This document shows, piece after piece, positions 1,707 through 56,224 of a stretch of DNA of 64,000 nucleotides. The notes under the pieces were generated by a model, which was given only the letters and a program-made list of their open reading frames with translations, searched no databases and was not told the DNA's origin. A program made the translations under genes and the position numbers. Origin of the DNA: Brugia malayi (lineage: Eukaryota > Nematoda > Chromadorea > Rhabditida > Onchocercidae); the NCBI RefSeq assembly GCF_000002995.4, contig NW_025062477.1, positions 2,622,001 through 2,686,000 of the forward strand, in the 5' to 3' direction. Position 1 is the stretch's first letter. Every line of letters begins with the position of its first letter.

Positions 1707-2799
1707 ATGGAAGGTCAAGATGAGCGCACATTTTTGTGTGGTTATCAACGAACACGCGGATACGGCAGTTTATCAAATATTCATATTTCCGCAAAAACTT
1801 ATCGTACAATCATTCAACATCAGATTAAACCGAATGATACACTTCAAGGACTCGTTCTGAAATACAACACTTCAGTATGTATTTCTTATTAAATTTATTT
1901 CTTATAAATAATTTTTCGGTCAGTTGAAATTGTGCGAAATGACTATAACTTCGGTGCATCGTTGTTTACGAATTTGTTTGTCACTGAGATGAAAGGAAAG
2001 GTCAAGCAATGTTCAGCTATTTACATTATGACATTTTTTTGAAAATCATTTAGAAGAAAATGAAGTAAAAAACTTTATTTTTTGTCATCTCGAATAAGCT
2101 ACGTATAATAGGTGTTTCCCTTCGAAAATCTTTTAAGCGAGGTATCTAGCGTTTCTTAACTTTGGCTGACTTTCTTTTCCTTTATTTTAGATGAAGCAGC
2201 TTAATGATTTGTCTTTTTGATGAGATAGGAACTAGTATTTCTATCAGAATGCGTGGAACGTATTATTTTCTAAGCAATATTAACATTAATTGTAGATGAG
2301 CGAAATAAAACGATTGAATCGTCTTTGGTCGAATGAAAGTCTCTACCTCAAGGAATATATCGAGATACCAATCTATGATGAAATTTTTGAGAAAAATCAT
2401 GCATCGACCTATAAGGATAGACCTATAAGTGTGAAGAAAGACCGGTGCTATGAAGAATCTAAGAAATCGCATGATATCAACGAAGAAAGCCTACAAGACA
2501 TCTTCAGAAGAATTGACATGAATATCAGGAAGACAACGGATACTGTACACAAATTAACGGAGAATTCGGCGTAAGTTTGACGACTTTTAGTACTGATGGG
2601 AATTAATCTAAGAGTTTTCCCCTTTATTTGATGAGAAAAAAATTAGAGAATTCTGATTGCACTTTTTTTTCCAAATTGTCACCCGCTGGGGCGTCTTTCA
2701 AAAATTACCAGCCTTTGACATATGCATCCAGTGACTCTTATTCGTGCGTCCTTTTTTCTTAGGGAATTTCCGCCCTGTATTCTGCAACAGTTAAAATAA
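1707..2799 (+). CDS. LysM domain protein (LYSMD1/2-like)
   Basis: Exons 1707-1874, 2296-2570 and 2763-2799 join in phase to about 159 residues. The LysM domain is split by intron 1: exon 1 ends with IQHQIKPNDTLQGLVLKYN and exon 2 opens with IKRLNRLWSNESLYLKEYI, matching the animal LYSMD1/LYSMD2 pattern (DTLQGIALKY, then IKRANRLW). There is no signal peptide or membrane segment, as expected for the intracellular LYSMD1/2 branch, whose function is poorly known; binding to N-acetylglucosamine polymers is the ancestral role of the fold. The rest is a charged region with DIFRRIDMNIRKTTDTVHK, like the helical tail of LYSMD proteins. The last short exon (EFPPCILQQLK, stop) rests on splice signals only. 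Confidence 0.8.
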
Positions 2800-3522
2800 C
2801 GAAGGAACTGTCAGCAAATATTAAGAATGACTTTTTTTTTAAAGGCAAGTCTTTCACGTCTTCCTTTAGCAGACCTTTTTTAGCCCTGATTTCTTCGCTG
2901 GAAGTTTCAAAATGGAACTTGCACGAAGTAAGCCGAACGGTGAACACTCATTTGATTGTCATTCTTCGGGTTTTCAAAATGAAGCTTATCAAGACTAATT
3001 AGTCGTATTTGTCGTGCTTTTTAGAGGCATTGTTATTCCTGTTTTATCAGGTATTGTATGTACTCCTTATATCCATACAGATGTGCCATGTTCGCCAGTT
3101 GCTTTACTAATTACCAGGAAATTGTATGCTCACAGTGTACATGGAGTTCCTACAAAGTCGTATGCGATTCAAGTTTCCTTCGTTTTTTTATTACCACTAT
3201 TTCTGATCTCTTGTGGGACAAATCAAATTCTGTAATCTCAAATCTTCGCATCTTTGTTGGTATTGGAATAGTACTATATTGTGAACTCACCAATCAGCGG
3301 GAATTATCCGCAAACCATTATCTTGAGTTCTAATAAGCGCCATAGCTCTTCTTTCAAATTAGATTATCATAGAGTTGTAATATTCAATATCATTTTACCT
3401 GAATCAGCATTTCCCATGATTTTATTATGAATATATTACTATAAATTGTTGACTCCCCTACATTTACGTGAAAATTTATCCAACGATGTATAACAAATTA
3501 ATGATAATCACTAAATACGTCT
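2800..3522. other. Spacer between the convergent LysM and RPL4 genes
   Basis: 3' ends of two convergent genes. Open frames near 3014-3333 show no recognisable domain. I see nothing else here. Confidence 0.5.
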
Positions 3523-5546
<2,024 letters not shown>

Positions 5547-6473
5547 AGCACCTCTCTAAAATAATAGAAAAATTTTTTAAAAAACCTGCATGCAAGAAAA
5601 AAATAATAAAAAGTTATCAACATCTAATATACATCTAACTTTCTTTTATTTTTTTTAAATTTCTCTTTTTATCCCTAACATATAGTATCTAGCAACACAT
5701 CTAACTTATTACATTTTTCGAATATACAGCATAATATGCTATCATTCATCTATTAAATACATTACAAATATATGAAACACATAACTGAAGACAAACAATA
5801 CAATAAAATTCTCACACTAGTGATGCTTTAAATGTAACTAATCTACAAAAACAGTCTACAAAATAGTGCCTTCACAGCTTCGTTGCATATAAGAAACCCA
5901 TTATCCTTGGTTTTCTTGGTCAATAAAGAGAATATAGTAGGTCAATACTGAGATAACATAAGAATTCTAAGCATTAATATCAAAATATTAATCAGTAAAC
6001 ACAACTCCAACACATCATTCTCTACCACATAATAGCTGTACCACTTAGAGACCTAAACTTAATCAGACGATATAAGGCTGCAAAAGTTGATTATGCATTA
6101 CAAACTTCGTCTTTACATAGTTCGGATTGTTGGTTCGTTCATATTCGTAAGTGTTGATTAGGACTGGCAGTAGTGGATGGGTGATTTGAAGGAGAGATGT
6201 TGTGTTGGATGAGAAAGTGTAGTGTTATGAATGATTAGAAATGATCTAAGTTAAAGTTAGAACTGTAAAGATATGCGTAGGTAAATGTGCTAGTCAAATG
6301 TGCAAAATATATTTTACCATGTATGCTTATAATTATAATTAGCGATGTATAGTTTGCGTGAAAAATTATGATGTGATTGAAAACGTTCAATAAATTATCT
6401 CTTGTGTAATCCGTTTTTCACTACCATTCATTTAAGGGAAAATATTTCAAAGACGTAGGCTATTTTCGTTCAT
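5547..6473. other. Divergent spacer between RPL4 and the coiled-coil gene
   Basis: About 0.93 kb of AT-rich DNA, presumably holding the RPL4 promoter on the minus strand and that of the next gene on the plus strand. No coding region or RNA gene was recognised. Confidence 0.5.
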
Positions 6474-7739
6474 ATGGAAGTTATATCAGCAGGGATCACT
6501 ATGGACGAAGAGATGGATTGCACGTCAAGTTTATTGACTCAGCATGAAAGACCTGAATGCACTGATTCTTCTACTGGTTAGTATCGCAAAAAAAGAACTG
6601 AAGTATCTGCTTCAGTTCTTTTTTTGATTGTCCAAAAACTATTAAGAGATGCATTTACAAACTTAATGAGGGAAATTATGGTATAATTTTTTGTTTTCCT
6701 GAAAATTCATGTATATTTTTGATGTATATTCCAAAAGGCTGTTTTTTGTTGCTTACAGAAACGGATATGAGTTAAAGCAAATATAGTCACTACTTGTAAA
6801 TTAAATCTTATTAGATTAAACTGGACCATTCATTTCCAGGAAAAGAAAATTGAATTAGGAAGAAGCGTTCAGGAATTATTCTTTTAGAACCGAAGAGACA
6901 ACGACTAGATGATGATGCTGATGAAAAATTAACAGATAATGCGATTAGAACTAAGAGACTAACTCAATTAAAGAAAGATATTGCTATCTTGGAGGCTGCA
7001 GTTCGGCGCGGTCAAGAAACGGTAGAAAAAATGTTAAATATGGCGGTAGAAGACATGGCAATTGATCCATTGGTAACAATTCATATTTGTTAATTTATCT
7101 TATCTCCATTTATCATATTTCGAGTCAAAAATTATGTCTTAGAAAATGTCTGTTTCAGTCTCGACAGGAAGATCTCTTAAGGAGGCGTCATTCACTAATG
7201 GCTGAGATTACTTCTACACAAAAAGCAGCGGGAAGAAGTAGGTTCAAATCTATTGAAATTAAAGAGATAATAGTGTGAACTTCGTTTTTTTAAGGAATAA
7301 CTTAATAGGAAGGAAAATTTCTATCATTTGTACTTATTTTTTATCTTATGTTCAGTGAACCGAGTGGAGCGTTTGCAAAACGGTTCGTTGGTGGTTAATT
7401 TATTGGAGAATATCGGAAACAGCAACGATACTCCTTTTATTAAAGTAAGGAAATTTTGCTGTAAAAAATTTCTGTTATCCGGAAGATAAAAAATTAACGA
7501 CTAAGTAGTGTTATGAAATGAACAGACAGTTTTATGATAATATATCATATTTCAATGGATTTCAGTAATCATTTTCTTCAATTCAAGGTGTTCCAAACTT
7601 GCTGCATTTTAAAAATCATTCGAACTATTCGTCAGATTTCTCTTGTGTTCAGGTTGAAGCATGGGAACTAAAGAAATGCGGTTGTGATTTCTGCAATGTT
7701 TATAATTCATCCCGAATTGAGCTCCCACCACGTGTCTAA
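6474..7739 (+). CDS. Unrecognised coiled-coil protein
   Basis: Five exons in consistent phase: 6474-6576, 6888-7072, 7159-7237, 7356-7444 and 7653-7739, about 180 residues. I do not recognise the family. The N-terminus is acidic (MEVISAGITMDEEMD) and rich in Ser/Thr. The middle is a predicted coiled coil starting RTKRLTQLKKDIAILEAAV and continuing into DLLRRRHSLMAEI. The end is a short segment with a CxxC pair, KKCGCDFCNVYNSS, followed by a Pro-rich stop region. There is no signal peptide or membrane segment. Exon 2 starts at the acceptor CTTTTAG; the earlier CAG at about 6840 would bring an in-frame stop. A small nuclear or complex subunit is possible, but nothing in the sequence proves it. 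Confidence 0.6.
6587..6626. repeat. Perfect 17-bp hairpin in intron 1 of the coiled-coil gene
   Basis: CAAAAAAAGAACTGAAG (6587-6603), loop TATCTG, then the exact reverse complement CTTCAGTTCTTTTTTTG (6610-6626). It starts only ten bases after the intron donor. Confidence 0.85.
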
Positions 7740-9001
7740 ATTATTTTCCTATGAAAGGTTTGTGGTAACGTTTAAAATGCAGATCTTCTTGATTAGTGTT
7801 GTAAATTTAGTTGTGATTGTTGAATCAACTAAAAGACAAGTGAAATTAAGCTGATTGAGTATTAGTTTTCTTAGCAGTTTCCCATTTACGATAACTAAAT
7901 TCCTCTGTAGATAGAGCTTTAAATGGTAATGTATCACCGCTTATTTCAGCCTAGGTGATTATTTCGAGATCTCAACAGCATTGTCCATGATCTATGCTGA
8001 AATATTTATTATTGCATATGAGTCCGTGGGAAGTTTGGTTTATTTTAGAAATTTCAGTGAATCGGTCTGATTTTATTTGATGATTTTATATAGAAACATT
8101 TATATTTCGCTTTTTTTTGAGTTCTAGATTTTGTATAAATATTTTTCTTAAGTTAATGTTTCTCTAAAATCTTTCATTTCTGAACATAGTTAGGGCCATT
8201 TCGTAGCGTTATTTTTTCTTGTCTTTCATTTTTTTTTTTTCTTTAAATTTGGATTGATCTGATTAAATTAGTATTACAAGGAATTAGTCTGATTTTTTTC
8301 TAGCTTTATTGCTTAACCGCTAGTTACTTTTACTTCACGTGCGCTTCTTTTTTGCTCTATTGATGCAGTTATAAACGCACTTTGTGTATATTCACATATA
8401 GTATTAGGTACATGTTCTCTTTAATAACTCATTCCATTTTTTATGAAAAATTTCCTACTACTGCCATTGATTCCAATAAGATAATTATTCCCTAAAGATA
8501 TTTGTCAATGAAAAGCAACTTTTTAGATTTGCTGCTTGAAGACCACTTGTCGCTTTGATAAGTGGCTTGCTTTGTTCAGCAGATGTGTTTGCCAATAAAA
8601 TATTTTTTTTATTTAAAAATGCTTCTTTAACAGTGAATAATGTCATAGTGCATCATCCATACATCGTGTTAGTACGCTGTAGTTTGGAGATAGCTAAATC
8701 GGATATTTGAGATTTTCGATATCTCTTCTTTAATTCCTTTTCCAAGTATTCACAAGCAATATTAGTAAGCACTGGGGTGATTGTGAATATAAACAGATTA
8801 ACTTGTGTTAGGAGGTATCAGTATCGGTGTTTTTGGGCATATAACGTATGAATATGGCACAAAACACTATTGCTATTTTGATAAGCTCGTCGGCTGCTGC
8901 TGTTTTAGTCTTTGACTTTCTCTTGTAAATTAATTTTGCATTGAGTTTTTCTGCTTAATGAAGTGAATGGCTTTGCAAAGTAAATTACTACTGTATAGGA
9001 A
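7740..9001. other. Spacer before the UBXN1 gene
   Basis: 1.26 kb of AT-rich sequence with several T runs. No coding region, RNA gene or clear repeat was recognised. Confidence 0.5.
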
Positions 9002-15263: not shown

Positions 15264-16946
15264 ATGGACGTATGCATCGTCGTCAAAGCGTGTAATTTTG
15301 CAGCTGAACGTCATCGCTTACAGAGACGGAAAGATGCTTTGCAGACGCCTTATATCAATCATCCTATTGGTAAATTAAACTTTGCTTATTAGAGTTATTT
15401 AGCTTGCAAAATATTTAGAGTTAGAATAGAACAAAAGTATGAAACTGATTATAATTGACCGCAATTATGCTATTTCAAGAATATTTCATGTCATTTAGTC
15501 TTTTGGAAGCATTTCAGTATGTTTTCATCGTCATTGTTGCATTTATCTTCACATGTAATATTTTTCTATTTCATTTTTTTTTTCTATATTTGTATCTTCT
15601 GTATGTTAAGTTAAGACGCATAAAATTTTTGATTAGGATTTATACTTCGAAGAATTTATTTTAGGTGTTGCGAACATATTATCCTCAGAAGTTGGTGTGA
15701 CAGACAGTGCGACGATTGCAGCAGCACTGTTGCATGATACTGTTGAAGATACATCTACTACTTTCCAGGAAATCAGTAGTTTATTTGGTGAAGAGGTGCT
15801 TTTCTCTCGAAACTTTTTGTGGTAGCTCAAAGAAGAACATTTGGTACGAGATTATGATCTGTTGATCTTATTTTCTATTTTCAGATTAGTCAAATCGTGC
15901 AAGAATGCACCGATGATAAAAGTTTACCAGCCTCTGTACGGAAACAGCTACAAATTGAAAATGCGGCAAAACATTCACATAAGGTTAATTTATAATTGAA
16001 CATGAGAGAGCAGAATAGGAAGGAAGCTGAATCATGTATTTATTATTACTAATTATTCATTTTGATTGTATTGTATATTTTACATTTTTTTGAGATATTC
16101 TTGTTCTGGAAAGGACTTGTCCTTCATTAGTGTAAAACCAAATGCTTAACTTATGTCCTTGAATACAAAACCAAATCCTGGAGATTTACAGCAGAGGATA
16201 TTGAAATATAAAGTGAAACGTAGCATCTCGAATTTTACTATTCTTTGTCTCCTGTTCAGCGTCTTAATGGTGTTAGTTATGTGTACCATATGAGGCGCAG
16301 TTTTATTCGACTGAGTTTCAAAAACATAATTTTAAGAAATTGTTCTTGTGTTAAGCAATTTCGAGGAAAAGCAGAATATGGCAATTCATACTTTTCACCA
16401 GAATGTTGAAGAAGACATATCATTTTAAGGGTGAGAATAGAAACAGTGAGTCGATCATTAGTATCACAAAGAAAAATGTGCAACTATTGTAAGAATTAAA
16501 TAGGGTAGAACAACGCAGTCTAGTGAGATATAACTACCGGAGAGTGTAGATTTGCACACACGTAATATGTAAGCATGCAAGGGAAAATATTCTGTGCTAA
16601 GTACTTTTTTTAAAAAGAAGTCGAAATTGAAATTAAATGAAAGTAATATTATTTGAGCATTAAATAATGTGTGATCCCAATAATATGTATACACTGAGCA
16701 GGAATTATTGATTGTCATGTTATGCAGTTCCACAAATACAATCTGTTGTAGGCAAAATTAATTCACCTCGCCGATAAACTGTATAATTTGCGGGATTTGG
16801 AACGTGAGACACCGGTTGGATGGAGTACACAAAGGGTAAAAGAATATTTTATATGGTCGAAAGCAATTGCTTCAGAATTAAAAGGAACTAATGAAGCTCT
16901 GGAAGTCGCCCTTGATGATGTCATTAATAGGTATTTGTACAAATGA
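15264..16946 (+). CDS. MESH1/HDDC3-type HD hydrolase
   Basis: Four exons: 15264-15369, 15665-15795, 15885-15983 and 16752-16946, giving 176 residues (human HDDC3 is 179). It is the stand-alone metazoan relative of the SpoT hydrolase domain. Metal-binding HD-domain motifs are present: the first His in TPYINHPIG, and HDxxED as LLHDTVEDT; the conserved helix [14 protein letters not shown] follows. Known members hydrolyse (p)ppGpp in vitro and act as a cytosolic NADPH phosphatase in animal cells. The last exon reads straight to a stop (VINRYLYK), so no further exon is needed. The upstream ATG at 15248 is in another frame. The gene is complete. Confidence 0.94.
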
Positions 16947-17063: not shown

Positions 17064-18025
17064 TAGGGATTTGTTAGAAGGAGTTTTCTTGGTTGTGATT
17101 TGGAGTCTGTAATGACGAATGTGTTCTGTAATAGTATCTGTTGCAACAAAGTTTTATTCGCTAGCAACTACATTTCACAAAATATTAATTAAAACATTGA
17201 CAATATGCTGATAATTTCATAGAGATGTTACTAAGAGTATTTGATGAGGTGGAAGAAATAAACGGATGCTATACATATATAATATAATATAATAAATTTA
17301 AATAAATGAAATACAAATTATATAATGTAAAAAAAATAAATAAATAAATTTAAATAAATGAACCTTAATGAGTGCACGAACCAGCCAAACTGAAGCTTGT
17401 TGACCCTCGAACACTGATTGAAGCAGTGATTTAACATTTTATATAATAGATATTGGTTTACAACAAAGCGCACGATTACAGTGATTAAGAACTGTCCTGC
17501 CGGATGATCTCTACTCTTTGTACAGTAAGAGTTGAGTGATGTCATTTGCTCATAAGAATGATTACTAGGTTAGAAAACACGGTAATATATTGTAGATTTG
17601 GTTTAGAATAAAAGAACAATTTCCAAAAATATTAATTATGCATATATTCTTTGTTAACAACTGTAACATTCAAATAACAGCCAACTGGAAGATGAGTGTT
17701 GGATAAATGATTGCTTACATGATATGTAATTTGGAAATAGTTTTTGTTTGTCTGAGAGATATTTAATTCAGACAATTTTTGGATTTTATTTTCACATATT
17801 ATTATAATTGGTCCTGACATTTCCGAGCGGAAGATGTGAAAACCTTCAGGAGAAAAGATTAGATACAATGTTTGAATGTGTCGGTTTGGAGCATTTCTGG
17901 TTCGTACAGCGATAGGCTGTTATTGTTCATCGTCTTCCAAAACTGATTTGTCGAACTCAGTTGGTCAATTTTTGAATTTCCTTTACTTCTAAAAGGTACA
18001 GCATATTCACTAGTTAATTGAGGGG
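17064..18025 (+). repeat. Left arm of a large inverted repeat (962 bp)
   Basis: This segment is the near-exact reverse complement of 18887-19816. The pairing 17591 with 19321 and 18025 with 18887 shares one register; outer parts (17261 with 19619) are offset by 32. The offset is one 32-base segment present only in the left arm, in the interval about 17541-17574. Otherwise only scattered single-base differences are seen. The arm starts 118 bases after the MESH1 stop. Two minus-strand open frames run through it (17868-17632 and 18086-17859); neither is recognisable. Confidence 0.93.
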
Positions 18026-18044
18026 CATATTCACTAGTTAATTG

Positions 18045-18090
18045 ATCTTTCATTTCATTTACACTTACATTTGCTCTAGTCCTCATTTAT
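18045..18090 (+). repeat. Inner inverted repeat, left copy (46 bp)
   Basis: Exactly complementary to 18330-18375 over 46 bases without a mismatch. The pair brackets 239 bases that contain the plus-strand UEV exon. A 21-base direct repeat of the type CATATTCACTAGTTAATTG lies just to its left. Confidence 0.95.
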
Positions 18091-18128
18091 GTAGTTGTTT
18101 TTGTTAATTAAAAAAAATTTTTTCTCAG

Positions 18129-18344
18129 AGTAAAATAGACAACTTACCGGTGGCAATATATCTCCGAGACACTCATCCTTACAAGGCGCCAACATGTTAC
18201 GTGTGCCCAACGACGGATATTGTACTGAGGGAATCCGAAACAGTGGATGAGTTAGGACGCATTTCTTTAACATATCTTCGTAATTGGACCTTTCCAGGAA
18301 ATCATTTAAGTGGTATAATAATAATAATAATAAATGAGGACTAG
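18129..18344 (+). pseudogene. C-terminal half of a UEV (TSG101-like) domain, exon in inverted orientation
   Basis: After the acceptor TTTCTCAG the plus strand reads the second half of a ubiquitin E2 variant domain: LPVAIYLRDTHPYKAPTCY, then RISLTYLRNWTFPGNH. This matches TSG101 (PICLWLLDTYPYNPP, then YLPYLHEWKHP). No N-terminal half exists upstream on this strand; it is on the minus strand at 18678-18487. A donor is possible at 18313 (phase 1); if not used, the frame stops at 18344 inside the 46-bp repeat after a run of Ile codons. In the orientation shown it cannot be spliced to its other half, so I call it broken. Reversing only the segment between the 46-bp repeats would place it correctly behind the N-terminal exon. 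Confidence 0.75.
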
Positions 18345-18375
18345 AGCAAATGTAAGTGTAAATGAAATGAAAGAT
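18330..18375 (-). repeat. Inner inverted repeat, right copy (46 bp)
   Basis: Reverse complement of 18045-18090. It overlaps the end of the plus-strand UEV reading frame and follows a short ATA microsatellite. Confidence 0.95.
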
Positions 18376-18486
18376 AGAAGAGAGATCGAAATAGTGTGTG
18401 ACAAAATATAATACCAAAATGGAGTGAGTGACTAAAACAATCAAGCCGTCTACAAAATAAATAAGGAACGCTCTTAAATGACAAAC

Positions 18487-18678
18487 AGGGATGGCGCCCT
18501 CCAGACAAAATGCAGTTGAACACGTGTAGTCCGGATAAATGTGATTAAACACGTTCGGTTTGAATCCAGGAAAGTGTCTTAAAGCTGACAGTATGTCAGC
18601 TTTCGCCATATTCATATATTTTGCTTTAGCTCGTTGCAGTAAAACATCAACGGTCGACGAAGCGAGCCTGTCTTTCAT
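18487..18678 (-). pseudogene. N-terminal half of a UEV (TSG101-like) domain, minus strand
   Basis: Starts MKDRLASSTVDVLLQRAKA and continues through ADILSALRHFPGFKP to TAFCLEGAIP, 64 residues, ending at a phase-0 donor (CCT then GTTTGT). It aligns with the first 60 or so residues of TSG101, including the turn before GTIPV. The frame runs on past the donor to about 18076 but loses all resemblance to the family. UEV domains lack the catalytic Cys of E2 enzymes and bind ubiquitin and PTAP motifs in ESCRT-I. The matching second exon (phase 0) is on the opposite strand at 18129. No stalk or steadiness-box exon was found nearby, so even the rejoined unit would be a UEV-only protein. Confidence 0.75.
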
Positions 18679-18742
18679 TACTACAAAATTTCATTTATAA
18701 TCATTTTTTTTTTTATATTGATAAGAATTAGATTTTTGCATA

Positions 18743-18898
18743 ATGGATGACGAATTAGATTTTTGCATGATAAATGCTCAATACTCCACAATAAGTAGTA
18801 GTTCCCATGGTGTGTGGAAATTAGCCAGGATAAAAGAAAGAGATAGAGAATTAAGAGGTGCTTCAATAGAATTACCACACAGAAAACCCCTCAATTGA
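18743..18898 (+). other. Short open frame running into the right repeat arm
   Basis: Starts MDDELDFCMINAQYS, contains KLARIKERDRELRG, and stops 12 bases inside the right arm. One base shift in the A/C run at 18882-18890 would join it to the frame that continues through the arm (LTSEYAVPFRSKGNSK to TDTFKHCI). It lies 64 bases from the minus-strand UEV start, in divergent orientation. Family unknown; it may be the broken 5' end of a gene whose 3' part was duplicated into the left arm. Confidence 0.35.
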
Positions 18899-19816
18899 CT
18901 AGTGAATATGCTGTACCTTTTAGAAGTAAAGGAAATTCAAAATTTGACCAACTGAGTTCGACAAATCAGTTTTGGAAGACGATGAACAATAACAGCCTAT
19001 CGCTGTACGAACCAGAAATGCTCCAAACCGACACATTCAAACATTGTATCTAATCTTTTCTCTTGAAGGTTTTCACATCTTCCGCTCGGAAATGTCAGGA
19101 CCAATTATAATAATATGTGGAAATAAAATCCAAAAATTGTCTGAATTAAATATCTCTCAGACAAACAAAAACTATTTCCAAATTACATATCATGTAAGCA
19201 ATCATTTATCCAACACTCATCTTCCAGTTGGCTGTTATTTGAATGTTACAGTTGTTAACAAAGAATATATGCATAATTAATATTTTTGGAAATTGTTCTT
19301 TTATTCTAAACCAAATCTACAATATATTACCGTGATGACATCACTCAACTCTTACTGTACAAAGAGTAGAGATCATCCGGCAGGACAGTTCTTAATCACT
19401 GTAATCGTGCGCTTTGTTGTAAACCAATATCTATTATATAAAATGTTAAATCACTGCTTCAATCAGTGTTCGAGGGTCAACAAGCTTCAGTTTGGCTGGT
19501 TCGTGCACTCATTAAGGTTCATTTATTTAAATTTATTTATTTATTTTTTTTACATTATATAATTTGTATTTCATTTATTTAAATTTATTATATTATATTA
19601 TATATGTATAGCATCCGTTTATTTCTTTCACCTCATCAAATACTCTTAGTAACATCTCTATGAAATTATCAGCATATTGTCAATGTTTTAATTAATATTT
19701 TGTGAAATGTAGTTGCTAGCGAATAAAACTTTGTTGCAACAGATACTATTACAGAACACATTCGTCATTACAGACTCCAAACCACAACCAAGAAAACTCC
19801 TTCTAACAAATCTCTA
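18887..19816 (-). repeat. Right arm of the large inverted repeat (930 bp)
   Basis: Reverse-complement partner of 17064-18025. It carries the same open frame as the left arm (19044-19280, plus strand, with two residue differences) and the same AT-rich TTTAAATAAAT tracts. The inner edge lies at the CCCC at 18887; the outer edge is at about 19816, where the two arms diverge abruptly. Confidence 0.93.
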
Positions 19817-33482: not shown

Positions 33483-35220
33483 ATTTTGTTTAATAGATTC
33501 AGATTTTTCCACTGAATTTGATTTGTAATCGAATCTGAAAATTAAGCTGAAAATTGAGAGAAATTCTTTTTTTTTCCACTTCATTTTACCCAATCGATCG
33601 AGAAAATTAGCCCATCTTACAAAATTTATGAAACATTGCTAATATCAGTGTGAATTTTAAGTAAAATTAAATATTTTGCTTAATGAATGAAAGTGCTATG
33701 ATAGAAATTATTCAATGGCTCTATTTTTAATTTAAAAAAAATAAAAAAATAAAATATAATTTACAAATATGAATTTAATAAATTAGCAAAATGAAATATT
33801 CCGATTATCGTTCATTTCAACAAATATGTGATGTAAAGAATTTATATTTTAATCTGTCATCCATAATTTTAATTTATCATCCATATGAAAAATGAAAATG
33901 AATTTATCTTCTGCAATTGACAATTTCGTGAAATTTCAATTTTTCGAATTCTTTTTTTAGAAAAAAAAAAATGATGATGAATGCTTAGTTTAACGCATAC
34001 TGAAAAGAGCAATGAAATAATGTTGAAAAATCAAAAAAAAAAAAAAAAATGGAGTGAATAAAAACACTGATAGTGTTATCAGTGATCAGTTTTAAACTAA
34101 TCAATATTACATGATGATATGCTTAGAAAATTATCATTTCTCCATATGGTTGTAGTGATAACAGAATCATTAATGAACGATGGGAATAGAATCATAAAGA
34201 TAGAATGAAACACAATTTGAAATAAATTTATTATTAAAATAAATTTCTATCTAACAAGTACATTAATGAAGGAAATTGTGAATCATAATAGAATTTATGT
34301 TAAGACTTTTTTAATTAAAAGTAATTAATAAGTAATGAATAGCAATAATAATCTAATGATAATAATAAATAAATAAATAAATAAATAAAATAATAATAAT
34401 AAATAGTCCTAAAGTTATAGGATACTATTTTCATTATCACAAATTAAATCAGTGTTATCAATTTTTGACCTCACTTCATTACTCTTCAATTTTTTGCTTC
34501 ATACATTGAAGATAACGATCTAAGTATTACTATATTACTGAAATAATTATGCTTACCTATATTTCTCTTGTCTTAAGCTTATTAATTTAAATTAAAACAT
34601 AAAATGAATGATACAGTTTTGTTACATCCAATGATAAGTAATCAAATAATATTAAGTTAAAAGAAGTAAGAAAAACAACAAAAAAAAAAAAACGAGTATA
34701 AGAATTATTAATTTTATCCTACAACTTAATTGGTTTAATTAGATTCTCGAGAAAAGTAAACATTCTCGACTGCTTTTATTGAAGATAAACTGATCAGATG
34801 AAATATATCAGTGTAAAATTTGATGATGAAATGAAAATATTGAAAGCATTATGCTAATGCAAACATGAAGAAGCATTGATAGAAGGTCTATTCTATCCAT
34901 ATCAGTGATGAGTAATTCATTTTTTTCATCAATGAATCATACATTCAAAAAGATTAAAGTGTCAGTGCTTAGCCATCAAATGGAATATACAACTTTATTT
35001 ATACATTAATTACGTGTGATACGCCTGCTTTTAACGTTTAAAGTTTAATGTTTATGTAATTACTTAGATAAATGTTTAAGTATGAATTTCTTCATTTGAT
35101 AGCTATTATATTTTCATATTGTATACAAAATTTTTGTTATAGATGAAAAATTACTAAAGACAATGATTTATGACACTTTTCTTTAGCATAAAGGAATTAG
35201 TTTGAATTTAAACAATACAC
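33483..35220. other. AT-rich spacer, first part
   Basis: Very AT-rich with A runs (for example 34038-34050) and an AATA microsatellite at about 34366-34390. No gene recognised. Confidence 0.5.
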
Positions 35221-36174
35221 TTATCAGTTATGTGAAATTAGACAATTAATTAATAATCATTAAATTAATCAAATTGATATTAACTAATCATTAAATTAAT
35301 CAAATTGATATTAAGTTATCAGTTATGTGAAATTAGACAATTAATTAATAATCATTAAATTAATCAAATTGATATTAACTAATCATTAAATTAATCAAAT
35401 TGATATTAAGTTATCAGTTATGTGAAATTAGACAATTAATTAATAATCATTAAATTAATCAAATTGATATTAAGTTATCAGTTATGTGAAGTTAGACAAT
35501 TAATTAATAATCATTAAATTAATCAAATTGATATTAAGTTATCAGTTATGTGAAATTAGACAATTAATTAACAATCATTAAATTAATCAAATTGATATTA
35601 AGTTATCAGTTATGTGAAATTAGACAATTAATTAATAATCATTAAATTAATCAAATTGATATTAACTAATCATTAAATTAATCAAATTGATATTAAGTTA
35701 TCAGTTATGTGAAATTAGACAATTAATTAATAATCATTAAATTAATCAAATTGATATTAAGTTATCCGTTATGTGAAATTAGACAATTAATTAATAATCA
35801 TTAAATTAATCAAATTGATATTAAGTTATCAGTTATGTGAAATTAGACAATTAATTAATAATCATTAAATTAATCAAATTGATATTAACTAATCATTAAA
35901 TTAATCAAATTGATATTAAGTTATCAGTTATGTGAAATTAGACAATTAATTAATAATCATTAAATTAATCAAATTGATATTAACTAATCATTAAATTAAT
36001 CAAATTGATATTAAGTTATCAGTTATGTGAAATTAGACAATTAATTAATAATCATTAAATTAATCAAATTGATATTAACTAATCATTAAATTAATCAAAT
36101 TGATATTAAGTTATCAGTTATGTGAAATTAGACAATTAATTAATAATCATTAAATTAATCAATTTGATATTAAT
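35221..36174. repeat. Complex AT-rich satellite, 64-bp unit in 12 copies
   Basis: The 64-base unit begins TTATCAGTTATGTGAAATTA. Twelve copies are seen, nearly identical. After copies 1, 2, 6, 9, 10 and 11 a 31-base extra block (CTAATCATTAAATTAATCAA and on) follows, which is itself a duplicate of the unit's 3' half. So two unit lengths, 64 and about 95, alternate irregularly. Confidence 0.95.
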
Positions 36175-38323
36175 ATATTTTGAGTAAGCCATTTTCTCAC
36201 TAATTTTATCATTTATACGTCAAAACAATATGTAATTTAACAGTAAGAATAATCCATTTATTAGTTTAAATTTCTTTTTTTCTTTTGCAAAACGATTAAA
36301 AAAATATTTTATTGAATGCACTGATTATTATTGAATAGTAGTATCCAAGGCATTGTCAATTTTATTTCCATAAAAGTTAACATTTAATGATGCATATTTG
36401 ATGAATCGATAGAGTTATGAACAGAAAATATTTAATAAACAATTGTATGAGTCATTCTGATCAATTCCAATTGGATGAGTCATTCTGATCGATATATGAT
36501 CAATTCCGATCAGTACTTACATATTTAACTTTATGCCTTATATAAATGAATCAAATTTTTAATCATTTGAAAATAATCGATTCATTTATGATTTTTAATG
36601 AAGTTTTTAGTACAAATTTAGCATCAATTAGTAAAGAAAGTAAATTTTATACCATAAATTAATGTAAGAAATCAATTATTTAGAATTTTTGCTTTCTTTG
36701 AATTTCTTAATTGTATAAAGAAAGTTATGTGATAAAATTTAAAAAATCATTTTAAATTTGATAAAACTAATATAAGTGGAACATACTGCTCGTCGCTGTA
36801 TCACACAAAATGAAATATTTGCGCTCATTTGCTTACTAATCAAATAAAGATTCCTGTGATAAACAATTCATACATCCGAAATTACATATAGTTATATAAT
36901 TATTATAAATTTTGATAATTAAAATTTATTGAAATGTTAAAATAAGGTTTTAATTTTAATTTGCATACAAAGTATTTTCATTTTATCAAACGTTCAATTT
37001 CCGTAAATAATTGCTAAGTGAAGAAGAAAAAAAAAAATCTTACTAATACTAATTAAAATAATGAAATTTGGTCCTTCTGCAAATAGATAAATGGAATTTT
37101 TCAATTTTTTTTTTTATTTGAAAAAAGGAGGTAAAACGAAAAGAGAATGAAACTGAAGTAGAAAGAAAGGGAGAGAGAGAGAGAGAGAGGGAGGGAGAGA
37201 GAAAGATAGAAAGAGGGAAAGAAAGGAAAATAAATGGTATGCTTGGCGTGCTTTGGGAATTAACGGTCGTCTGCTCATCACATCTTACTTAAGTAAACAA
37301 AACAACCACTTGTTGTATGCTTGCTTAGACTAAAACATTTATGTTAAAGCTTAAAATTGCGACGATGACTGCAGCTGCAACTGCAACTGCAACTACAGGT
37401 GCAATTGCAGGTGCCACTAGTACTACTAGTATTATTATTAATACAGTGTTAGATAATACACATAAATTTTAATGCTGGCATTTAAAGCAATAAATGTAAA
37501 AGGAGAATTGTAAATATGTCGTTAAGCCAAGATGTCCACTTTTAATCCTTCGTTCTCAATTAAATATTCGATGACAGAAATAAAACAGAAAGAAATAGGA
37601 AAAAAAGGAGAGAAAGAGAAAGAATTGATGATTGCTAATATAATAATTAAATTAATTGATTATAAGTGATGTGATATGTATTGGAAATATATTGGAAGGT
37701 AAAATAAATTAAGAATAAATAAATAAGTAAATGAAATTATTTATTAGCTAAAAAAACTCAAATTTATGGTATATTTTATTTCATTTTCTTGTGTATATTT
37801 TACATTTTATTTTTTTATTTTTTGCAAAGTAAATGACTGAATAAATTTAATAATGCAATGGTTAGAGTTAACATTGATTCAGTGAAAATAAATTCATTAA
37901 ATTTGAATTTACTTAATTTCAACAAAATGGAATTATTTATAGAATCGAATCATCTATTGAGATAGCAATTTTCATTGTGTGCTATGTTCGAAAATGCTCG
38001 TATGATGATGGCACCTTGGTTGTTTTGGGAAGGTGGTGGCAGGAAGGAATTTGGCAATTTTGTGAGGTGGAGGAATTATTCCAGAAATTTTGAACATATT
38101 GCTACTCCTAGAGAAAGTTGAGATTCTTTTAGGAAATGCGTTTCACGAGTTTCTGACTACGTATAATATTTTTATAATTGTATGTGTCTACTTATTATTA
38201 TTTCATTAGTATAATATTTTATTGGTATGTTTATTTTGTATTAATTCGTTATAATATCAAGATTCAGATTGATTTATTGATGTTATATGCTCTCAAATAT
38301 TCATAATTCGTAGTTGTCAGGTG
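36175..38323. other. AT-rich spacer, second part
   Basis: Contains a GA-rich microsatellite at about 37165-37215 and a GCAACT microsatellite at about 37366-37410. The latter lies in a 43-codon frame from 37341 (MLKLKIATMTAAATATAT); low complexity, probably not a gene. Otherwise nothing recognised. Confidence 0.5.
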
Positions 38324-54880: not shown

Positions 54881-55472
54881 TAACATAATAATCATTCATA
54901 ATGATCTTAAAACTGATCATTGAACTATTGACCTGAAATACGAATAGAAAAACGTGAAAATATCCTTCATTTATTCAGGTAGAGAAACAAATTGAAATTT
55001 TGTTGTCAACAATATTCACTTGACCTGTCATATGACATGGCGACAATCATGCATTAATAAATCATAGAATATACCTGTAAACAACTCTATTGTCTCCTGT
55101 TATATGACTAAATGAGCCATCCATCTTAAATACACCTCAGATGTAATTAATTAATTGCTCTAAATTGTCTCCTTTTATAATCTTGTCATATTCTTGCCGT
55201 CTTTATTTTGAACTTTCCGATGCTAATACTTAAGAAATATTGAGACAAAAAAAAAAAAAATAAGGAATCTTAAAGTTATCAAATATAATAACTTCAGGTT
55301 TCATTAACTCTCAAGCTTCATCTGAAGTAAACTAATCCTAAATTGGTGATTAATTCACTTCACGGATGCAATCATTATTTATTCAATCATCAATAATAGT
55401 AAACATTAATTCTACCGTATCAAATAACGACATTCAAAATATTTCAAAGTAATATAAAAGAATAAATTTTAG
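54881..55472. other. Interval between the two possible last exons of the bHLH gene
   Basis: 592 bases, AT-rich; either an intergenic spacer or, if the distal exon is used, part of the last intron. Confidence 0.45.
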
Positions 55473-56224
55473 ACCTAGCAGAGAAGGAATTGCAACGTGG
55501 CGTTCGAACGGAAGATATTTGTCGACAAACTGTACCAGAACGTTACGCACTGCAGGAAAAAACGACGCAAAATCACTTCTCATCAATTATACGATTTCCA
55601 GTAATACTTCATAATAATAATGCTACTTCTTCTACGTTTATTCATAATAACGGAATCTCTCCGACAGTAATTTCTAATAACGGAATCTCTCCTGCAGTAA
55701 TTTCGAATAATGGAATCTCTCCGACAGCAATTCATAATAACAGAATCTCTCCGACAATAATTCATAATAACGGAATCTCTCCCACAGTAATTCATAATAA
55801 CGGAATTTCTCCGACAGGAATTCATAATAACGGAATCTCTCCCACAATAATTCATAATAACGGAATCTCTCCGACAGCAATTCATAATAACGGAATGTCT
55901 CCGACAGTAATTTCTAATAACAGAATCTCTCCTACAGTAATTCCTAATAATGGAATATCTCCGACGATAGCTCATGATAATGATAATAATCATGATACCG
56001 CAATGTCGACTACAGTAATTCCTAGTAATGGAACGCAGCGGGCAATAATTCATAATACTGCTGCGGCCACTTCAACAGTAATCCGTAATAACGCAACTTC
56101 GCCAACCGTAATTCCTAGTAATGCAACATCACCGCCAGTAATTCATGATAATTCATCTCAGGTTTCATCGTTTTCCGGACAATCTGTCGCAGATAATTTA
56201 AATTATTTTTCTTTTCCTAATTAA
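55473..56224 (+). CDS. Repeat-coded exon, candidate alternative last exon of the bHLH gene
   Basis: The open frame begins at an acceptor (AATTTTAG) with two bases of a split codon, exactly the phase left by the exon 3 donor at 54441. It reads DLAEKELQRGVRTEDICRQT, then a decapeptide repeat HNNGISPTVI in 11 imperfect copies (about 55640-55970), then a Ser/Thr/Asn-rich tail that stops at 56222-56224. There is no in-frame ATG before the repeat array (first at about 55893) and a stop lies just upstream of the acceptor, so the frame cannot start a gene by itself. Joined to bHLH exons 1-3 it would give a protein of about 360 residues. It could also belong to another unseen transcript. Confidence 0.5.
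55640..55970. repeat. 30-bp coding minisatellite
   Basis: About 11 units of 30 bases with the consensus core AATAACGGAATCTCTCCGAC, always in the same frame. The minus strand is open across it as well (156 codons), a consequence of the unit length. Confidence 0.9.

What the first reader, a model, noticed from the sequence alone, without database searches (positions are those of the whole stretch)
18045..18678. UEV gene with its second exon flipped between perfect 46-bp inverted repeats: a possible invertible cassette
The N-terminal half of a TSG101-like UEV domain is on the minus strand (18678-18487, ends in phase 0) and the C-terminal half is on the plus strand (18129-18312, starts in phase 0, with its own acceptor). 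The plus-strand exon is bracketed by a 46-bp inverted repeat without a mismatch (18045-18090 and 18330-18375). Reversing exactly this segment would put the exon in the right place, strand and phase. That is what a recombination switch, or a recent inversion through a short repeat, would look like. An assembly fault is the main alternative.
Basis: partly seen in the sequence, partly recalled or inferred. Interest (0 to 1): 0.85.

Follow-up and report, generated by a model that had tools for sequence, protein, structure and literature searches.

The report
Worm gene broken by fold-back duplication
In a filarial worm genome, a small gene derived from TSG101 lies in two pieces on opposite DNA strands, most likely because of a one-off fold-back copying accident and a later deletion rather than a genetic switch.

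Summary
Exon 1 (minus), exon 2 (plus) and the perfect 46-bp inverted repeat are as described. Both repeats are best read as one palindrome: its spacer is the exon-2 segment, and its left arm has lost ~510 bp, patched by a 19-bp copy of its own flank. Both 46-bp copies keep gene-sense order with intron 1 of colinear paralogues, so the repeat is probably a product of the rearrangement, not a switch site. Predicted 145-residue proteins of Brugia pahangi and Wuchereria bancrofti join the same two exons; their last ~20 residues were not found here. The genome is probably B. malayi (inferred). Best explanation: fold-back inverted duplication plus a deletion in one arm, breaking a UEV-only gene in one lineage; on this reading exon 2 kept its strand and exon 1 is the inverted copy. 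No reads and no DNA of relatives were available, so polymorphism, a two-event inversion and assembly error are not excluded.

The parts
17064..18025 (+). Left palindrome arm (r), probably the original copy; contains an old dispersed repeat
   Evidence: 7 substitutions in 930 aligned bases against 18887-19816, one 32-bp indel; 54 matches in the genome, a lower bound, including itself and the other arm
18026..18044 (+). 19-bp filler identical to 18002-18020: templated patch at the deletion in the left arm (patch is inferred)
18045..18090 (+). 46-bp repeat, left copy: innermost part of the left arm, part of intron 1 in gene sense, continuous with exon 2
18129..18312 (+). Exon 2 of the UEV gene copy, inside the palindrome spacer 18091-18329
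18313..18329 (+). Mostly (ATA)n tract at the novel junction, where the relatives' proteins continue with GLLQVMMDVLPK
18330..18375 (-). 46-bp repeat, right copy: innermost part of the right arm, part of intron 1 in gene sense, continuous with exon 1
18376..18886 (-). Segment X: intron 1, exon 1 and 5' flank, present in the right arm only
   Evidence: 18800-18886 matches dispersed copies L030, L039 and L038
18487..18678 (-). Exon 1 of the UEV gene copy
   Evidence: 97% identical to residues 1-64 of B. pahangi P0004
18887..19816 (-). Right palindrome arm (R), probably the inverted copy

Best explanation
A duplicate of the 5' part of TSG101 had become a small UEV-only gene in the Brugia/Wuchereria lineage. 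In the lineage of this genome (probably B. malayi) a broken end beyond exon 2 folded back and primed copying of its own upstream sequence. This gave a palindrome with the exon-2 segment as spacer, and the 3' end of the gene was lost. A second event deleted ~510 bp from the original (left) arm, where an exon-1 copy would have lain, and was patched with a 19-bp copy of the adjacent flank. What remains is exon 1 only in the inverted right arm and exon 2 in the spacer on the other strand. The 46-bp repeat is the stretch of arm left between the deletion and the spacer. Shown: both nested inverted repeats, arm divergence, the 19-bp copy, colinear paralogues, predicted proteins joining the same exons in two relatives, no match to their C-terminal segment. 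Inferred: fold-back priming, the order of events, which arm is original, loss of function.
For: Nested inverted repeats whose order fits one palindrome with a one-sided deletion. Minus 18480->18330 matches paralogue intron 1 in gene sense (L022 score 85, shuffle maximum 55; L021 66 against 59), and so does plus 18045->18128 (L021 67 against 45; L022 50 against 46); 0 of 300 shuffles reached any of these four, the opposite orientations were unremarkable, and the arm left of 18045 matched neither paralogue in either orientation (37 to 252 of 300 shuffles as good). Paralogues L021 and L022 are colinear. Predicted proteins P0004 (B. pahangi) and P0005 (W. bancrofti) join the two exons; their C-terminal segment had no convincing match in the window (best E 0.45 elsewhere in it) and none in the genome as a pattern with up to 3 mismatches. 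Filler 18026-18044 equals 18002-18020, like the flank-templated inserts of polymerase theta in C. elegans (PMC5068794, passages). A spacer between inverted copies with adjacent loss is the published sign of fold-back (PMC3907307, passages). The 30 bp of left outer flank extends the match to dispersed copies (3 of 8 copies at 1 of 300 shuffles or fewer, 4 of 8 with no gain; summed, 0 of 300), which fits the left arm as original.
Against: The sequence that once followed exon 2 in this genome is unknown, so microhomology at the fold could not be tested; an (ATA)n tract sits there. The right outer flank also extends the family match weakly (summed, 4 of 300 shuffles as good), so polarity is not certain. 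The repeat taken alone is not significant against L021 (25 of 300 shuffles as good), and L022 has about 60 bp of intron between the repeat and exon 2 that the window lacks. Inverted pairs of the dispersed repeat, inner ends facing, occur elsewhere (L030, L037), so older arms kept alike by gene conversion remain possible. The 46-bp repeat at 0 of 46 and the arms at 7 of 930 cannot separate one event from two. No DNA of relatives was seen.
Confidence: 0.62

Rival explanations
1. Two events: a microinversion of the exon-2 segment by staggered break or template switching, duplicating the 46-bp piece, in a gene already lying between inverted copies of a dispersed repeat kept alike by gene conversion.
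For: An inverted duplication at both breakpoints of an inverted segment is the staggered-break pattern (PMC5080602, passages). Human-chimpanzee microinversions are flanked by inverted repeats (PMC8755829, passages). Inverted pairs of the arm repeat exist elsewhere.
Against: Needs separate origins for the arms and for the loss of the C-terminal segment, which should lie left of 18045 on the minus strand; that sequence matches neither paralogue and the segment was not found in the window. The outer flanks of the two arms show no clear homology to each other (shuffles as good: 290 of 500 for 40 bp, 35 of 500 for 80 bp, 117 of 500 for 120 bp, 140 of 500 for 200 bp).
Confidence: 0.24
2. Assembly or library artefact (chimeric or unsplit hairpin read).
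For: No reads could be examined and no second assembly of the species was at hand.
Against: The arms differ by 7 substitutions, a 32-bp indel and a ~510-bp deletion with a 19-bp patch. If this is the published B. malayi assembly, its PacBio subreads had N50 8,771 bp (PMC7291094, whole text) against a 2.8-kb structure.
Confidence: 0.07
3. Invertible cassette: the exon-2 segment is flipped back and forth through the 46-bp repeats, turning a UEV gene on and off.
For: Perfect repeats; predicted proteins of relatives join the two exons.
Against: The repeat is intron sequence in its original place on both sides. PF00589 was not found in the genome (serine recombinases not searched). The relatives' C-terminal segment was not found.
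Confidence: 0.04
4. A transposon with long terminal inverted repeats that captured a TSG101 fragment.
For: The arms contain a dispersed repeat (54 matches including both arms, a lower bound).
Against: Of 17 fetched loci chosen for copies (L024-L040), 13 show a single copy, 2 a pair with inner ends facing and 2 a pair with outer ends facing (matches over 45 bits). Many copies stop near 17780, well inside the arm.
Confidence: 0.03

Closest known systems
Fold-back inverted duplication with spacer and adjacent deletion (human chromosomes, PMC3907307, passages seen)
   Same: Inverted copies flank a single-copy spacer that continues one arm; sequence beyond the spacer appears lost
   Different: Kilobase scale and inside a chromosome; spacer 239 bp against 766-70,466 bp in that study; one arm later lost ~510 bp
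Polymerase-theta deletions with flank-templated inserts in C. elegans (PMC5068794, passages seen)
   Same: Deletion patched by a short exact copy of the immediate flank (19 bp)
   Different: Inferred here from one footprint; no genetics
Staggered-break inversions of Drosophila (PMC5080602, passages seen)
   Same: Inverted duplication at both ends of a reversed segment
   Different: Does not explain the outer arms or the missing 3' end
TSG101 / UEV family (PF05743)
   Same: Two UEV exons homologous to the canonical gene around C139:11443425-11445385
   Different: No Vps23 core here. Four residues (VFYK) that end canonical exon 1, by a splice site inferred, are absent here and in P0004 and P0005

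Membership tests
Fold-back inverted duplication | Inverted copies flanking a single-copy spacer | tested here: met
Fold-back inverted duplication | Spacer keeps ancestral continuity with one arm, novel junction to the other | tested here: met
   18090/18091 lies inside the paralogue match; 18329/18330 does not follow the paralogues
Fold-back inverted duplication | Loss of sequence beyond the spacer | tested here: met
   relatives' C-terminal segment not found; a short or diverged exon can be missed
Fold-back inverted duplication | Inverted microhomology at the spacer / inverted-copy junction | tested here: inconclusive
   (ATA)n tract, ancestral sequence unknown
Fold-back inverted duplication | Absent from sister species | tested here: inconclusive
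   predicted colinear proteins in two species; no DNA seen
Site-specific invertible cassette | Inverted repeats flanking the segment | tested here: met
Site-specific invertible cassette | Recombinase available | tested here: inconclusive
   PF00589 not found by six-frame search (found in 14 of 14 control genomes); serine recombinases not searched
Site-specific invertible cassette | Both orientations occur | not testable with these tools
   needs reads
Site-specific invertible cassette | Reversal gives a complete product | tested here: not met
   C-terminal segment of the relatives' proteins not found
Staggered-break inversion | Inverted duplication at both ends of the reversed segment | tested here: met
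Staggered-break inversion | Ancestral neighbour of the reversed segment kept on the far side | tested here: not met
   sequence left of 18045 matches neither paralogue, and the relatives' C-terminal segment is not in the window
TSG101 (ESCRT-I) | UEV domain | tested here: met
   (exon 2)
TSG101 (ESCRT-I) | Vps23 core | tested here: not met
   one match in the genome, at the C139 gene

The most novel reading that the evidence does not exclude
The rearranged locus is expressed as something new: a 200-residue open frame runs from the exon-1 start through intron 1, the 46-bp repeat and the antisense of exon 2. The ~950-bp arms could also flip the whole centre, so that both orientations segregate in worm populations.
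Probability: 0.04. Interest if true: 0.6.

Novelty: new member of a known kind. Interest (0 to 1): 0.27.

Why it matters
It shows at base resolution how a fold-back copying error and a one-sided deletion can imitate an invertible gene cassette. It also suggests loss in one Brugia lineage of a UEV-only gene that still appears whole in predicted proteins of B. pahangi and W. bancrofti. The reading predicts which strand the intact gene should occupy in B. pahangi, which a public assembly can check at once.

Tried and rejected
Transposon with terminal inverted repeats: the arm repeat is dispersed, but 13 of 17 fetched loci show a single copy. Second, near-identical copy of the locus elsewhere in the assembly: none in the matches (other UEV matches 80% DNA identity or less). 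A product of this locus in the protein collection: the 200-residue frame found only the two relatives, through exon 1 (2 of 43 candidates at E <= 0.001). The frame itself: 136 codons stay open after exon 1, and 0.27% of random starts in the window stay open that long; notable, but picked after the fact. Selection: dN/dS between the copy and TSG101 is 0.41 (bootstrap 0.245-0.708, 500 rounds; exon 1 0.70, exon 2 0.22), which fits a formerly constrained gene but averages both copies. Wider range of the UEV-only protein: a profile search found only the same two proteins (2 of 38 candidates at E <= 0.001). Literature: 'UEV domain' with 'Brugia' found 0 papers; 'Brugia malayi' + 'inverted repeat' + 'palindrome' found 4, none on this by title; two of 'TSG101', 'filarial', 'gene duplication' found 263, of which the 8 listed do not mention TSG101.

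Full report
What is there. Exon 2 matches the Pfam UEV family above its cut-off; exon 1 alone matches no family. Outside them lies a larger inverted repeat, 17064-18025 against 18887-19816, with 7 substitutions in 930 aligned bases and a 32-bp indel (one search counts 13 substitutions in 970 aligned bases, the other 6 lying in poorly matching flank left of 17064). In the 264 kb examined, comparable long, near-identical inverted pairs occurred at L038/L039 and smaller ones at L036 and L024; that sample was chosen for repeats or UEV hits.

Genome. The assembly has 86,826,992 bases in 139 contigs. Its contig C136 is 14,214,749 bases long, and the published B. malayi assembly has 87 Mbp and N50 14.2 Mbp, though it lists 196 scaffolds (PMC7291094, whole text). 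The published B. pahangi assembly has 80.8 Mbp and N50 11.2 Mbp (PMC7330237, whole text). The gene copy is 95% identical to a B. pahangi protein.

Relatives in the same genome. UEV matches occur at four places. The only Vps23 core found is at C139:11443425-11443583, so the C139 gene is taken as the canonical TSG101. Its exons 1 and 2 are colinear and match the window's at 74% and 80% DNA identity. A degenerate copy at C138 (L022) is colinear too; its neighbour L023 keeps part of exon 2.

Relatives elsewhere. The joined translation found two proteins (2 of 6 candidates at E <= 0.001): B. pahangi P0004 (95%) and W. bancrofti P0005 (82%), both 145 residues. P0004 has the same exon junction, GAIP|SKID; P0005 reads GTIP|GEID there. 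Both end in GLLQVMMDVLPKxLPSDSET. They are predicted proteins; their DNA was not seen. That end had no convincing match in the window (best E 0.45, far from the locus) and, as a degenerate pattern with up to 3 mismatches, none in the genome. The whole-protein search could not by itself find an exon that short.

Where the 46-bp repeat comes from. Read on the minus strand, exon 1, intron and right repeat follow paralogue intron 1. Read on the plus strand, left repeat and exon 2 follow the same intron onwards, with about 60 bp of the L022 intron missing between them. With 300 dinucleotide shuffles each, the right piece, including the repeat, scored 85 (L022) and 66 (L021), and the left piece 50 and 67; no shuffle reached these. 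The opposite orientations did not stand out, nor did the arm sequence left of 18045 in either orientation (37 to 252 of 300 shuffles as good). The repeat taken alone is significant against L022 (0 of 300) but not against L021 (25 of 300). So the repeat is best read as a piece of intron 1 now present twice.

One palindrome. The order is: left arm, 19-bp filler, repeat, exon-2 segment, repeat, segment X (intron 1, exon 1, 5' flank), right arm. This fits one inverted duplication whose left arm has lost X. The filler 18026-18044 equals 18002-18020, the kind of flank-templated insert known from polymerase-theta repair in C. elegans (PMC5068794, passages). The spacer keeps the ancestral junction with the left arm, so fold-back makes the left arm original and the right arm, with exon 1, the copy. 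The outer edge agrees in part: 30 bp of left flank extends the match to dispersed copies (3 of 8 at 1 of 300 shuffles or fewer, one more at 12 of 300, 4 of 8 with no gain; summed 0 of 300), while the right flank does so more weakly (summed 4 of 300). The two outer flanks show no clear homology to each other. In human genomes a spacer between inverted copies with adjacent loss is the published sign of fold-back (PMC3907307, passages).

Alternatives. A microinversion with duplicated ends (PMC5080602 and PMC8755829, passages) explains the 46-bp repeat but needs further events for the arms and the missing end. A switch is unlikely: no PF00589 match in the genome and no complete product expected on reversal. 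Assembly error is disfavoured by the divergence between the arms, but no reads were seen.

Function. dN/dS of 0.41 against TSG101 and the proteins of the relatives suggest a gene under constraint before it broke. Loss of function here is inferred, not shown. A 200-residue read-through frame exists; no product of it was found.

Noticed in passing
L039 (C135:7077001-7087000) 1877-3595 and 6135-7852; L038 (contig C131) 1-1717 and 4781-6500: 99.9% and 99.7% inverted repeats with 1.7-kb arms; L039 has open frames between them that resemble BEL/Pao retrotransposon pieces (resemblance recalled, not searched).
   Followed up: partly
C139 at 7.16/7.36, 7.54/7.64 and 7.82/7.99 Mb: Copies of the arm repeat in mirrored pairs with identical scores and opposite strands, which hints at large inverted duplications on that chromosome.
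   Followed up: no
L022 (C138 near 1845228) and L023 (C138 near 1861470): Two degenerate UEV copies about 16 kb apart on C138.
   Followed up: partly
window 55466-56224: 30-bp tandem repeats inside a 252-codon open frame that encodes a degenerate 10-residue repeat (ISPTVISNNG-like).
   Followed up: partly
window 35191-36272: Array of repeats spaced 31 and 64 bp.
   Followed up: no
window 15637-16946: HD-domain gene pieces on the plus strand (HD_4 above cut-off for 15637-15825), HDDC3/MESH1-like by recalled resemblance; the left neighbour of the palindrome.
   Followed up: partly
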